Of a stretch of DNA of 64,000 nt, positions 1,421 to 51,111 are shown one piece after another. The notes under the pieces were generated by a model. The model had not been told where the DNA came from, ran no database searches, and saw only the letters and a list, made by a program, of their open reading frames with translations. Position 1 is the stretch's first letter. Each line of letters begins with the position of its first letter. Location: NCBI RefSeq assembly GCF_003148905.1, contig NZ_QGHC01000004.1, positions 186,001 through 250,000 on the forward strand. Reading direction: 5' to 3'. The translations under genes and the position numbers were made by a program. The DNA comes from Fulvimonas soli. GTDB lineage: Bacteria; Pseudomonadota; Gammaproteobacteria; Xanthomonadales; Rhodanobacteraceae.

Positions 1421-1764
1421 TGCTCCTTCTCTCCTGCGGGAAGAAGAGTGGGATGAGGGGGCGGTGCTTGCGGGAGCGCGCAACGGGTCGGGGCCAACAA
1501 GCGGATACTGCGGCGAGCCATGGCCCCTCGCCCCGGCCCTCGCCCCGGCGGGGAGAGGGAGCAAAGCATTCGACCCTTCCGCGCGCTTTCCTGCCCCTTC
1601 TCCCCTGCGGGGAGAAGGTTGGGATGAGGGGGCGGTCTTGCGGAAGCGCCGCGATGGATCGGGGCCAGCAGGCAGGTACTGCGGCGAGCCCCGCCCCCCG
1701 CCCCGGGGGGGAGAGGGCGCAAAGCGAGGGCCACTCCCTTCTCCCCGAGGAGTGGGAGAAGGCG
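1421..1764. repeat. imperfect tandem repeat of palindromic elements
   Basis: The 418-base gap between lolA and ftsK holds no gene. It is filled by CCCCTTCTCCCC...GGGGAGAAGG-type palindromes in alternating orientation. Two units of roughly 170 bases are recognisable: one starts near 1428, the next near 1598, and a third begins and stops near 1738-1764. They share the strings GGGATGAGGGGGCGG and GATACTGCGGCGAGCC (GGTACTGCGGCGAGCC in the second unit) in the same order. Related single copies occur near 6517, 6662, 20705 and 23230. This looks like a dispersed REP/BIME-like family. Confidence 0.8.
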
Positions 1765-6516: not shown

Positions 6517-6684
6517 CCCTCTCCCCCCGAGGGGAGAGGGCTAGGGTGAAGGGCCAACCTAGCCCCGACGCTCGGCTCGGCTTGGGATGACGATCTTCCG
6601 CTTCGAGATTCTTACCACGACACGTCCGGGTGATGCGGCAGGACCGGCCCCCCACCCCCGACCCTCTCCCCGGAGGGGAGAGGG
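6517..6684. repeat. two palindromic repeats in opposite orientation
   Basis: Two copies of the CCCTCTCCCC/GGGGAGAGGG palindrome lie between trxB and the COG3146 gene, at 6517-6540 (loop CCGA) and 6662-6684 (loop GGA). Their flanks are related but inverted: CTAGGGTGAAGGGCC follows the first, and the complement of a similar G-rich string precedes the second. Such an inverted pair is the usual BIME arrangement. The first copy, preceded by TTTTT, could also act as a 3' stabilising hairpin for trxB mRNA. Confidence 0.75.
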
Positions 6685-6723
6685 AACCGGCATGCGACTG
6701 GATGGCAATGGCATGATCGACCC

Positions 6724-15708: not shown

Positions 15709-15735
15709 CATCGCGGCCGGAGGCCGCTTCCACGA
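15709..15735. repeat. GCGGCCGGAGGCCGC palindromic repeat
   Basis: One copy of the second dispersed repeat family, core ATCGCGGCCGGAGGCCGCTT, followed by CCAC. It sits in the 270-base gap between the cardiolipin synthase gene and xseA. Other copies are at 17841, 41753 and, as an inverted pair, 49918. The rest of this gap shows no gene; its right end contains the xseA promoter. Confidence 0.75.
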
Positions 15736-17283: not shown

Positions 17284-18228
17284 CTACTTCCTGCCGCGGT
17301 CCGCCGCGCGCTCCTTGGCCAGCCGCGCGTCCAGCATGGCTTGCATCTTCGCGGCATAGCGGCGGCAGGCGGAGCCATCGACGAGCGGGTCCGGCCGCGC
17401 GCCGCGCGCATGCGCCGCCGCGCGCGCCAGCAGGTCGCTGGCTTCCGGGTGCGGGGTCATCAGCACGTCGCAGGGCAGCGCCGCCAGCGTCGCCAGGCTG
17501 CGGCGGAACGCGGCCACGCGCTGCGGATGCGCCGGGTCGCCGTAGCGGTAGCGGTCGCCGGCGAAGGCCGAGAGGCTGTCGGCATAGACCATGGACAGGC
17601 AGCGTCCGTCCTCGCACGAGCGCCAGGTCCAGGTGGCGGCGCCGGGCGTGTGGCCGGGAGTGTCGTGTTCCGTCAGCACGAGTTCGCCCACGCGCACCGT
17701 GCCGCCGTCCGCCACCGCGCGCGCGGCCGGGACGGGCGGATAGTGCGGGATCTCGCCGTATTGCGGGTCGTCCGGATCGTCGCCGCCGGCACGCAGCGCG
17801 CGGGCGCCGGCGGTGCTGGCGTAGACGGTGGCTCCGGGCTCATGGCTATCGCGGCCGGAGGCCGCTCCCACGGAGGTCGCTCCGGCGGCGGTGTCGCGGG
17901 CCAGCGCGGCGATCGCGCCGGCGTGGTCGACGTGCGCGTGCGAGTTGAGGATGGCGCGCACGTCGTGCAGCCGGAAGCCGAGCGCGCGGATGTTCGCCTC
18001 CACCAGCGGCGCGTTCTCCGGCAGCGTGCCGTCGATCAGCACGTGGCCCTGCGGCGAGGTGACCAGGATGGCGCCGAGCCCCCGCGTGCCCACGTACCAA
18101 GTGTTGCCGTAGATGCGGAACGGCCGCTGCGGCGCGGTCCAGGCGGGATTCGCGTGGGGACCGGCCGCCATCGCGGCGCTGGAAGCGACGGCCAGCAGGA
18201 GGATGGCGAGGCAATGCCCGAGGCGCAT
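17284..18228 (-). CDS. subclass B3 metallo-beta-lactamase-like protein
   Basis: A 314-residue secreted zinc hydrolase. A Sec signal peptide (cleavage near AMA-A, about residue 21) is followed by the metallo-beta-lactamase fold. Metal ligands are visible: NSHAHVDHAG (His97, His99, Asp101, His102), His193 in PGHTPG and His260 in TPHPEASD. The context of each matches subclass B3 enzymes such as L1, including YADSLS and LPCDVLMTPHP. Residues about 114-131, between the first ligand cluster and the next strand, are extra and are encoded by a dispersed palindromic repeat (see the repeat at 17841). It could hydrolyse beta-lactams or be a related lactonase-type enzyme; activity is not shown. The next gene upstream on the same strand is a GNAT gene, 67 bases away. 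Confidence 0.85.
   Translation of the reverse strand: MRLGHCLAILLLAVASSAAMAAGPHANPAWTAPQRPFRIYGNTWYVGTRGLGAILVTSPQGHVLIDGTLPENAPLVEANIRALGFRLHDVRAILNSHAHVDHAGAIAALARDTAAGATSVGAASGRDSHEPGATVYASTAGARALRAGGDDPDDPQYGEIPHYPPVPAARAVADGGTVRVGELVLTEHDTPGHTPGAATWTWRSCEDGRCLSMVYADSLSAFAGDRYRYGDPAHPQRVAAFRRSLATLAALPCDVLMTPHPEASDLLARAAAHARGARPDPLVDGSACRRYAAKMQAMLDARLAKERAADRGRK
17841..17884. repeat. palindromic repeat inserted in frame in the beta-lactamase gene
   Basis: A copy of the GCGGCCGGAGGCCGC repeat, with its usual ATCGCGGCCGGAGGCCGCTC core and CCAC flank, lies inside the coding frame. On the coding strand it is read as GATSVGAASGRDSHEP, the peptide this repeat would encode in that frame. It adds about 18 residues between HxHxDH and the following beta strand. 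The reading frame is kept and no stop is introduced. Confidence 0.85.
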
Positions 18229-20567: not shown

Positions 20568-20704
20568 CGTCGCGGACGGTTCCGGTGGACGAGACGCGGG
20601 AGCATAGCGCAGGCGTGCGGTGGGGCTGCCATGACTTGGGGCATGACGGGCGTCGTGGCGTTTAGGGGAAGGACGGCACCATGGAAGGGCTGGGCGAGCC
20701 CCGG

Positions 20705-20744
20705 GCCCCTCACCCCGGCCCTCTCCACGGAGGGGAGAGGGAGT
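20705..20744. repeat. CCTCACCCCGGCCCTCTCC palindromic repeat
   Basis: A copy of the first repeat family: CCCCTCACCCCGG then CCCTCTCC-ACGGA-GGGGAGAGGG. It lies between the 3' end of pbpC and the start of the FAD-oxidase gene. A near-identical copy in the same orientation is at 23230-23271, just upstream of pbpC. Confidence 0.75.
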
Positions 20745-23180: not shown

Positions 23181-23229
23181 GGCGGGCGGGTAGGTTCAGA
23201 GGCGGCAAATCCGACGCTGCCGCGAGCGC

Positions 23230-23271
23230 CGGCCCCTCACCCCGGCCCTCTCCCCGGCGGGGAGAGGGAGT
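23230..23271. repeat. CCTCACCCCGGCCCTCTCC palindromic repeat
   Basis: A copy of the first repeat family, CCCCTCACCCCGG then CCCTCTCCCC-GGC-GGGGAGAGGG, in the gap between the alpha-2-macroglobulin and pbpC genes. It matches the 20705 copy in orientation and almost in full sequence. As RNA it would fold into a stable hairpin between the two cistrons. Confidence 0.75.
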
Positions 23272-41752: not shown

Positions 41753-41806
41753 CATCGCGGCCGGAGGCCGCTCCCACAGGCTTGCCGCGACCTTGTGGCC
41801 GCGATG
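41753..41806. repeat. GCGGCCGGAGGCCGC repeat with long-range dyad
   Basis: A copy of the second repeat family in the 213-base gap between rpmJ and greA. Here the unit is closed by its own complement: CATCGCGGCC (41753-41762) pairs with GGCCGCGATG (41797-41806), with the short inner palindrome and CCACAGGCTTGCCGCGACC between. The outer arms are perfect over ten bases. Confidence 0.75.
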
Positions 41807-49917: not shown

Positions 49918-49983
49918 ATCGCGGCCGGAGGCCGCTCCCACAAGGCTTGCGAGGCTCATGCGGGAGCGGCCTCCGGCCGCGAT
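49918..49983. repeat. inverted pair of GCGGCCGGAGGCCGC repeats
   Basis: Two copies face each other, with perfect 22-base arms (49918-49939 and 49962-49983) around a 22-base centre that includes CACAAGGCTTGCGAGGCTC. It starts three bases after the dnaJ stop on the minus strand. As RNA this would be the most stable hairpin in the window. The remaining part of the dapB-dnaJ gap (49720-49917) shows nothing else. Confidence 0.85.
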
Positions 49984-49986
49984 CGA

Positions 49987-51111
49987 TCAGGACGTGACCC
50001 GCGACCAGAACTGCTTGACGCCGTCGACCCAGTTCTTGGCGCGCGGCATGTGCCGCTCCGCCTCGCCCTCGGCGAAGGTCGCCTCCAGCTGTTCCAGCAG
50101 CTCGCGCTGCTGGCGGGTCAGCCGCACCGGCGTCTCCACCACCACGCGGCAGATCAGGTCGCCGACGCGGCCGCTGCGCACCGACTTCACGCCGCGGCCG
50201 CGCAGGCGGAACTGCTGCCCGGTCTGGGTCTCGGGCGGGATGCTGACCGCCACCTCGCCGTCCAGCGTCGGCACGGCGAGCTCCGCGCCCAGCGCGGCCT
50301 GCGAGAAGCGGATCGGCACCTCGCAATAGAGGTCGTTGCCGTCGCGCTGGAAGATCGCGTGCTCGCGCACACGCACCTCCACGTAGAGGTCGCCCGCCTC
50401 GGCGCCCGCCGGGCCGGCCTCGCCCTGCCCGGCCAGGCGGATGCGGTCGCCGTTGTCCACGCCGGCGGGGATCTTCACCGACAGCGTGCGGGTGTCCTCC
50501 AGCCGGCCCTCGCCGTGGCAGGCCTTGCACGGCTTCTCGATCACCTGGCCGGCGCCGCCGCAGTGCGGGCAGGCCTGCTGGATCGAGAAGATGCCGTTCT
50601 GCATGCGCACGCGGCCGTGGCCGTGGCAGGTGCGGCAGGTGACCGTCCGGCCGTCGGCCGAGCCGGTGCCGTTGCAGTGGTGGCAGTTGACCTGGGTGGG
50701 GATCTCGATCTTGCGCTCGACCCCGAACACCGCCTCCTCCAGGTCCAGCTCCAGGATGTAGCGCAGGTCGGCGCCGCGCCGCGGCCGGCCGCGGCCGCCG
50801 CCCATGCCGAAGATGTCGCCGAAGATGTCCCCGAAGATGTCGCCCACGTCGGCAAAGCCGGCCCCGCCGTGGCCGCCCATGCCGTGCTCGAAGGCGGCAT
50901 GGCCGTGCTGGTCGTACAGCGCCCGCTTCTGCGGGTCGGAAAGCACCTCGTAGGCCTCCTTGGCCTCCTTGAACTTCTCCTGCGCGTGCGGATCGTCGGG
51001 ACAACGGTCCGGGTGGTACTTCATCGCCAGCCGGCGGAAGGACTTCTTCAGTTCGGCCTCGGTGACCGTGCGCTCGACGCCGAGGACTTCGTAGTAGTCA
51101 CGCTTGCTCAT
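49987..51111 (-). CDS. dnaJ: chaperone protein DnaJ
   Basis: Hsp40 co-chaperone that loads substrates on DnaK and stimulates its ATPase. The 374-residue product has the J domain with [10 protein letters not shown] (HPD at about 33-35), a G/F region rich in GGHGGAGF and [18 protein letters not shown], four zinc repeats ([32 protein letters not shown]) and a C-terminal substrate domain. The ATG at 51111 is used; a GTG one codon earlier is unnecessary. It follows dnaK after 130 bases containing a strong hairpin. Confidence 0.97.

What the first reader, a model, noticed from the sequence alone, without database searches (positions are those of the whole stretch)
17841..17884. A dispersed palindromic repeat inserted in frame within a beta-lactamase gene
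The beta-lactamase reads about 18 extra residues (GATSVGAASGRDSHEP and neighbours) between HxHxDH and the next strand. The DNA is a copy of the same repeat found intergenically at 15709, 41753 and 49918. The frame is kept and all metal ligands remain. Repeats of this type seldom sit inside genes; this is a natural loop insertion into an enzyme fold.
Basis: partly seen in the sequence, partly recalled or inferred. Interest (0 to 1): 0.72.

Follow-up and report, generated by a model that had tools for sequence, protein, structure and literature searches.

The report
Dispersed palindrome spliced into beta-lactamase gene
A short repeated DNA palindrome that normally sits between genes has landed inside an antibiotic-degrading enzyme's gene without breaking its reading frame, adding what looks like a floppy 18-residue surface loop; such in-gene palindromes are uncommon but already known in bacteria.

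Summary
The gene (window 17284-18228, minus strand) is a subclass B3 metallo-beta-lactamase with 18 extra residues, 114-131 (17836-17889). Of 108 homologous loci compared, 106 show exactly an 18-residue gap there. The insert holds an exact 23-nt copy of a REP-type palindrome that has 250 copies in this genome (0.00 expected in the window) and, among 96 other genomes of its family, one copy in one. About 30 of the 54 inserted bases are not repeat.

Copies here rarely sit in genes: 4 of 198 examined, in three genes (beta-lactamase, holA, flhF), all in frame. In two related genomes, eight more genes carry related repeats in frame, including recD, metG and bioA. The predicted fold is intact; the insert is a low-confidence loop.

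Best explanation: a mobile REP landed in a surface loop and was tolerated because it is stop-free, keeps the frame and spares the metal site. REPs inside genes are already in print (PMC3733652), so this is a new member of a known kind. No REP transposase was found in this genome.

The parts
17284..18228 (-). Subclass B3 metallo-beta-lactamase gene, 314 aa, with a hydrophobic N-terminal stretch (signal peptide by inspection only)
   Evidence: Translation; NF033105 331 bits; PF00753; model matches Rm3 5iqk, TM 0.93 by target length
17836..17889 (-). In-frame insert of 54 nt, residues 114-131 AAGATSVGAASGRDSHEP; boundaries uncertain by a few bases
   Evidence: Exact 18-residue gap in 106 of 108 other loci and gaps in Rm3, MEM-A1, AIM-1; low-confidence stretch in the model
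17848..17871 (-). REP unit GTGGGAGCGGCCTCCGGCCGCGAT: GTGG head, GA, stem GCGGCC/GGCCGC, loop TCC, tail GAT; reads V-G-A-A-S-G-R-D
   Evidence: Exact 23-nt core match; 250 copies in the genome with up to 3 mismatches, 0 for the reversed control pattern; hairpin
17872..17883 (-). Left extension GGAGCGACCTCC beside the REP, near-copy of the unit's own GGAGCGGCCTCC
   Evidence: Extension plus unit in exact form found only here and in flhF in the whole genome, 2 of 9 places with up to 3 mismatches
15711..15733 (-). Intergenic REP copy, 1 mismatch
   Evidence: between predicted genes ending 15641 and starting 15912
41755..41777 (-). Intergenic REP copy, exact
   Evidence: between predicted genes ending 41456 and starting 41859
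49919..49941 (-). Intergenic REP copy, exact, one half of an inverted pair
   Evidence: between predicted genes ending 49674 and starting 49987
49960..49982 (+). Intergenic REP copy, 1 mismatch, other half of the pair

Best explanation
A repetitive extragenic palindrome (REP) of the Pseudomonas/Xanthomonas class inserted into the coding sequence of a B3 metallo-beta-lactamase, at the turn between the helix that follows HxHxDH and the next strand. The 54-nt insertion is a multiple of three, has no stop codon and lies in a predicted loop, so the enzyme kept its fold and all metal ligands and the allele survived. Shown: the repeat identity, the frame, the missing segment in relatives, the intact ligands and the rarity of genic copies in this genome. 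Predicted: the flexible loop. Inferred: that a transposition-like event brought it, that it is selectively near neutral, and that the enzyme still works.
For: Exact 23-nt repeat core, mean 0.00 expected, 250 genomic copies. 106 of 108 other loci lack exactly 18 residues at this site. At up to 2 mismatches the repeat occurs in 1 of 96 other family genomes searched, as a single copy. The model has mean pLDDT 91.2; the ten-residue blocks 111-120 and 121-130 have 77 and 54, against 90-98 for the other blocks from residue 31 to 310. A like case in holA, where the unit stands in a variable loop, and copies in the variable linker of flhF. Eight further genes in two relatives carry related REPs in frame. 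A 27-nt consensus has no stop in any of six frames.
Against: Thirty of the 54 inserted bases are not repeat core, so a clean one-unit transposition does not account for the whole insert. No REP transposase (Y1_Tnp PF01797 or NF047646) was found in this genome, although PF01797 is found in 67 of 97 family genomes. No same-genus genome appeared among the relatives returned, so the event cannot be dated or seen as a polymorphism. The N-terminal 30 residues of the model also have low confidence (54-69), so low pLDDT alone does not prove a flexible insert. Enzyme activity is untested. An assembly error cannot be excluded without reads.
Confidence: 0.86

Rival explanations
1. The inserted loop has been put to use: it changes substrate range, stability, subunit contacts or export of the enzyme and was kept by selection.
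For: The repeat core is unmutated in the gene. The insert follows the helix that starts just after the zinc-binding motif.
Against: The insert is a low-confidence stretch in the model. REP peptides sit in unrelated proteins with no common function. An unmutated core is equally expected of a recent insertion.
Confidence: 0.1
2. The palindrome acts in the nucleic acid, for example as an mRNA hairpin that tunes translation or decay of the beta-lactamase message.
For: The unit alone folds into a 6-bp hairpin, -11.8 kcal/mol, z = -1.40. Intergenic REPs lie mostly between same-direction (78) or convergent (53) genes, 5 divergent, 3 at stretch edges.
Against: In gene context the local fold is no more stable than shuffles, z = 1.13 for 131 nt and -1.08 for 56 nt. 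The unit lies mid-gene.
Confidence: 0.05
3. The segment is an old loop of the enzyme, or a chance look-alike, not an inserted repeat.
For: Thirty of the 54 bases do not match the repeat.
Against: Exact 23-nt match with mean 0.00 expected. 106 of 108 other loci lack the segment exactly. Two more genes of the genome hold the same unit.
Confidence: 0.02
4. The gene is decaying and the repeat is tolerated because the product is useless, or the insert is an assembly artefact.
For: Draft genome of 44 contigs. No reads available.
Against: Intact frame, six ligands conserved, 331 bits to the B3 model, codon-model score 66. holA, whose product the cell would be expected to need, carries the same unit in frame.
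Confidence: 0.05

Closest known systems
Intragenic GTAG-type REPs (BMC Genomics 2013;14:522, PMC3733652; passages and sections 5, 15 and 17 part 1 read)
   Same: REP units wholly inside ORFs of several species, as singles, dimers or groups; more than half are dimers or groups encoding 20-30 residues; loops or linkers suggested; many in DNA synthesis and repair genes, with X. campestris and X. oryzae recB cited. Here holA and, in a relative, recD fit that trend.
   Different: Its main text has no mention of lactamase, holA, flhF, Rhodanobacter, Dyella or Frateuria; its gene list is a supplement I could not open. The insert here carries about 30 extra bases.
Pseudomonas/Xanthomonas class of REPs with RAYT transposases (BMC Genomics 2010;11:44, PMC2817692; passages read)
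   Same: GT(A/G)G head, GA dinucleotide, palindrome; doublets or clusters in alternating orientation; often more than 100 copies (abstract).
   Different: This stem and loop is not among the REP sequences in the table passages I saw (table shown in part); no RAYT-type gene found in this genome.
Rickettsia palindromic elements (originals of 2000 and 2002 not held; seen only as described in passages of PMC10969869 and PMC3733652)
   Same: Palindromes inserted in frame in unrelated genes, judged compatible with protein structure.
   Different: Described as about 150 bp with an ORF, nearly half of them in genes; here 24-54 nt, and 4 of 198 copies genic.
Subclass B3 metallo-beta-lactamases Rm3, MEM-A1, AIM-1
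   Same: Fold and ligands; 47-49% identity in the structural alignments.
   Different: They lack the 18-residue insert.

Membership tests
GTAG-class REP (Pseudomonas/Xanthomonas type) | GT(A/G)G head followed by unpaired GA dinucleotide | tested here: met
   GTGG-GA in the consensus; 100 of 198 examined copies match the 23-nt core perfectly; class feature from PMC2817692
GTAG-class REP (Pseudomonas/Xanthomonas type) | Palindromic stem-loop with short loop and 3-nt tail | tested here: met
   GCGGCC-TCC-GGCCGC, tail GAT; hairpin; class feature
GTAG-class REP (Pseudomonas/Xanthomonas type) | High copy number and mainly extragenic | tested here: met
   250 copies; 194 of 198 examined not inside predicted genes
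GTAG-class REP (Pseudomonas/Xanthomonas type) | Paired units in opposite orientation | tested here: met
   62 adjacent pairs within 200 nt among the first 143 copies, 57 with heads inside; 55 of 62 are 16-22 nt apart
GTAG-class REP (Pseudomonas/Xanthomonas type) | Resident cognate RAYT transposase (usual companion; not part of the structural definition of the DNA unit) | tested here: not met
   No PF01797 or NF047646 match in the genome; relative G121 with 155 related units also has no PF01797 match
Rickettsia palindromic element-like protein-coding palindrome | In-frame insertion in conserved genes, absent from orthologues | tested here: met
   Beta-lactamase and holA, where 29 of 29 relatives are shorter by 2-7 residues in a naturally variable loop; flhF linker too variable to judge
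Rickettsia palindromic element-like protein-coding palindrome | About 150-bp element with its own ORF | tested here: not met
   Unit is 24 nt, insert 54 nt; so it works like an RPE but is not one
Rickettsia palindromic element-like protein-coding palindrome | A conserved encoded peptide, that is one preferred reading frame | tested here: inconclusive
   Sense unit in the VGAA frame in 8 of 11 genes, p = 0.009 against 1/3, grouped after seeing the data
Subclass B3 metallo-beta-lactamase | B3 model above cut-off, ligands HxHxDH + H + H, B3 fold | tested here: met
Subclass B3 metallo-beta-lactamase | Hydrolyses beta-lactams | not testable with these tools
   needs an enzyme assay

The most novel reading that the evidence does not exclude
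In this bacterial family REPs are a recurrent source of new protein loops: different REP types, amplified separately in different genomes, repeatedly enter conserved enzymes in frame, and the surviving ones are mostly read in the frames that give Ala/Gly/Ser-rich peptides (VGAA..., AAxAAPT), so the DNA element behaves like a frame-tolerant linker donor, here reaching an antibiotic-resistance enzyme fold.
Probability: 0.35. Interest if true: 0.55.

Novelty: new member of a known kind. Interest (0 to 1): 0.34.

Why it matters
It is a clean natural insertion experiment. The state without the segment is known from about a hundred distinct relatives, the donor sequence is known, and the target is an enzyme fold with many solved structures and simple assays. 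It makes testable whether mobile palindromes are neutral loop donors or change enzyme behaviour. With the eleven genes found in three genomes it also offers a way to ask whether frame choice is filtered by the peptide produced. It is not a new kind of system.

Tried and rejected
Target-site duplication: GCCGGAGCGACC and CCCGGAGCCACC flank the unit with 10 of 12 matches, but 72 of 1000 random window sites do as well or better; not claimed. IS200/IS605-type movement is said not to make larger duplications (PMC2817692 passage).

RNA hairpin role: no excess stability in gene context.

Viral origin of the repeat: no exact 24-nt match in the viral contigs (the tool warns that records of this genome or very near ones may be left out).

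A transposase that moves the unit: PF01797 and NF047646 not found in this genome.

Rows set aside and limits: the L360 hit in G056 was treated as a chance match, not a REP, so 14 of 96 rather than 15 of 97 went into the test. The binomial tests treat paired copies as independent, which they are not. The coding fractions used (0.833, 0.861, 0.816) come from the fetched stretches, some of which overlap. The beta-lactamase alignment for folding used 53 of the 70 homologue stretches first offered; L075 was dropped for a stop codon and 16 others were dropped without being tested. The G000 survey read 198 of 250 copies; 52 were not read. In G121 51 of 155 and in G056 97 of 128 pattern matches were read. 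Relatives were aligned at the insert only for the beta-lactamase, holA and flhF, not for the eight genes of G056 and G121; of these rnfB is the weakest (gene score 18, units beyond the Fe-S domain). Gene calls come from a home-made codon-usage gene finder, not a standard one.

Recalled only, no call: that proteins of Lysobacter and relatives often carry VGAASAAT-like stretches; it served as a lead.

Full report
The gene. The minus-strand ORF at 17284-18228 encodes 314 residues. It matches the NCBIfam subclass B3 metallo-beta-lactamase model at 331 bits, above its 240-bit cut-off and split in two stretches, Pfam Lactamase_B, and solved enzymes Rm3, MEM-A1 and AIM-1. Ligands H97, H99, D101, H102, H193 and H260 are in place, all in columns invariant or at least 90% conserved over 54 sequences. 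Relatives found by sequence are mainly Dyella, Frateuria, Rhodanobacter and neighbours, so the window comes from that group; its own genus has no other genome among those returned.

The extra residues. I aligned the protein against 108 other loci (29, 79; 99 distinct aligned sequences). 106 lack exactly 18 residues between HxHxDH plus its helix and the next strand. The other two, 35% and 44% identical, show 9 and 17 gap positions in the counted stretch. One relative reads ...HDT-GATVYAS... where this gene reads ...RDT-AAGATSVGAASGRDSHEP-GATVYAS.... The insert is residues 114-131, window 17836-17889, with a few bases of boundary uncertainty.

The repeat. The insert contains GTGGGAGCGGCCTCCGGCCGCGAT. 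Its 23-nt core occurs 5 times in the window with up to 3 mismatches, against a mean of 0.00 in 100 shuffles. In the whole 3.77-Mb genome it occurs 250 times, against 0 for the reversed control. Copies mostly form inverted pairs: 62 adjacent pairs within 200 nt among the first 143 copies read, 57 with the GTGG heads inside, 55 of them 16-22 nt apart counting all 62. Of the 139 non-genic copies in that set, 78 lie between same-direction genes, 53 between convergent genes, 5 between divergent genes and 3 at stretch edges.

What kind of repeat. GTGG head, GA dinucleotide, palindrome and a 3-nt tail are the features given for REPs of Pseudomonas and Xanthomonas (PMC2817692, passages) and for GTAG-1/2 families (PMC3733652, sections). 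The sequence itself is almost private to this genome. Of 97 genomes of the family searched with up to 2 mismatches, only this one (244 copies) and one relative (1 copy) match. Related units with other stems or loops are patchy in the family, for example 155 in G121 and 128 in G056.

How often it is in genes. I read 198 of the 250 copies with their surroundings and called genes with a codon-usage model trained on the window. Four copies, in three genes, are genic: this beta-lactamase, holA (DNA polymerase III delta) and flhF (names). The coding fraction of the fetched stretches is 0.83, so depletion is extreme. In holA the unit plus three codons stands where the closest relatives have a 4-codon loop, net +7 residues; 29 of 29 relatives are shorter here, by 2 to 7 residues, so this loop varies naturally and part of it may have been replaced rather than interrupted. 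In flhF an inverted pair sits in a linker too variable to define an empty site. In all three genes the sense unit is read V-G-A-A-S-G-R-D. The beta-lactamase and flhF share an extension GGAGCGACCTC before the unit that occurs in exact form at no other place of the genome; I have no explanation for this.

Other genomes. To see whether this is a peculiarity of one genome, I read related repeat units in two relatives. In G121 2 of 51 copies, one pair, lie in recD. In G056 15 of 97 matches are genic; with one set aside as chance, 14 of 96 copies lie in seven genes that score above the cut-off of an NCBIfam model: rnfB/rsxB, metG, icmF, hrpB, a UbiH-family hydroxylase, bioA and murL. So in G056 genic copies are less rare than in the window's genome. 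Relatives were not aligned for these eight genes; in bioA, the hydroxylase and icmF several model matches are split into stretches. In 8 of the 11 genes over three genomes the sense unit is in the VGAA frame (p = 0.009 against one third; 15 of 20 units counting partners, p = 0.00017). The grouping was made after seeing the data and paired units are not independent, so I treat it as a lead.

Structure. AlphaFold2 with 54 sequences gives mean pLDDT 91.2, pTM 0.88. Ten-residue blocks 111-120 and 121-130 have pLDDT 77 and 54, against 90-98 for the other blocks from residue 31 to 310; the N-terminal 30 residues are also low, 54-69. Helix 106-121 runs into a loop 122-133 before strand 134-138. The fold matches Rm3 at TM 0.93 by target length. 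The insertion point is at the far end of the helix that starts just after the zinc-binding motif, so I infer, without a measured distance, that it is away from the metals.

Mechanism. Shown: identity of the repeat, frame, missing segment in relatives, intact ligands, rarity in genes of this genome. Inferred: a REP moved here or was captured during repair, brought along or was joined to about 30 other bases, and was kept because it is stop-free in all six frames and fell in a turn. How it moved is open. No Y1 transposase or REP-associated tyrosine transposase was found in this genome, although the Y1 model is found in 67 of 97 family genomes, so the mover may have been lost or be unlike the models. 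G121, also REP-rich, has no Y1 match either. The imperfect flanking direct repeat is not better than chance. An RNA role has no support from folding.

Prior knowledge. REPs inside genes, as singles, dimers or groups, suggested to lie in loops or linkers and often in replication and repair genes, are described in PMC3733652 (passages and sections 5, 15, 17 part 1 read); its main text does not mention lactamase, holA or flhF. Rickettsia elements are described in PMC10969869 (passages); of the original Rickettsia papers I looked one up and it was not held. A search for a REP element or in-frame insertion in a subclass B3 beta-lactamase found no paper with at least 3 of 4 terms, and in a search for intragenic REP terms the 15 listed of 134 papers held nothing closer by title. 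I conclude a new member of a known kind.

Noticed in passing
window 1499-1561, 1657-1719, 6624-6686, 20681-20743, 23208-23270: A second dispersed repeat family around CCCTC..CCCCGG.GGGGAGAGGG, copies 67-84% identical to the reference copy.
   Followed up: no
L182 916-2400 (-) and L030 1059-2090 (-): flhF and holA of the same genome carry the same REP in frame; in holA it stands in a variable loop that is 4 codons long in the closest relatives.
   Followed up: yes
L313, L355, L361, L371, L383, L386, L309 (genome G056) and L328 (G121): In-frame pairs of related REPs inside metG, icmF, hrpB, a UbiH-family gene, bioA, murL, rnfB/rsxB and recD; orthologues not aligned.
   Followed up: partly
whole genome G000, and relative G121: Both carry over 150 REP units but no Y1 transposase match, so what spreads them is unknown.
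   Followed up: partly
window 17872-17883 and L191 1501-1526 (-): The two genic units in the beta-lactamase and flhF share an upstream GGAGCGACCTC extension not seen in exact form elsewhere in the genome.
   Followed up: partly
window 49919-49982: Inverted REP pair that ends 4 nt from the predicted 3' end of the gene at 49987-51111 (minus strand).
   Followed up: no
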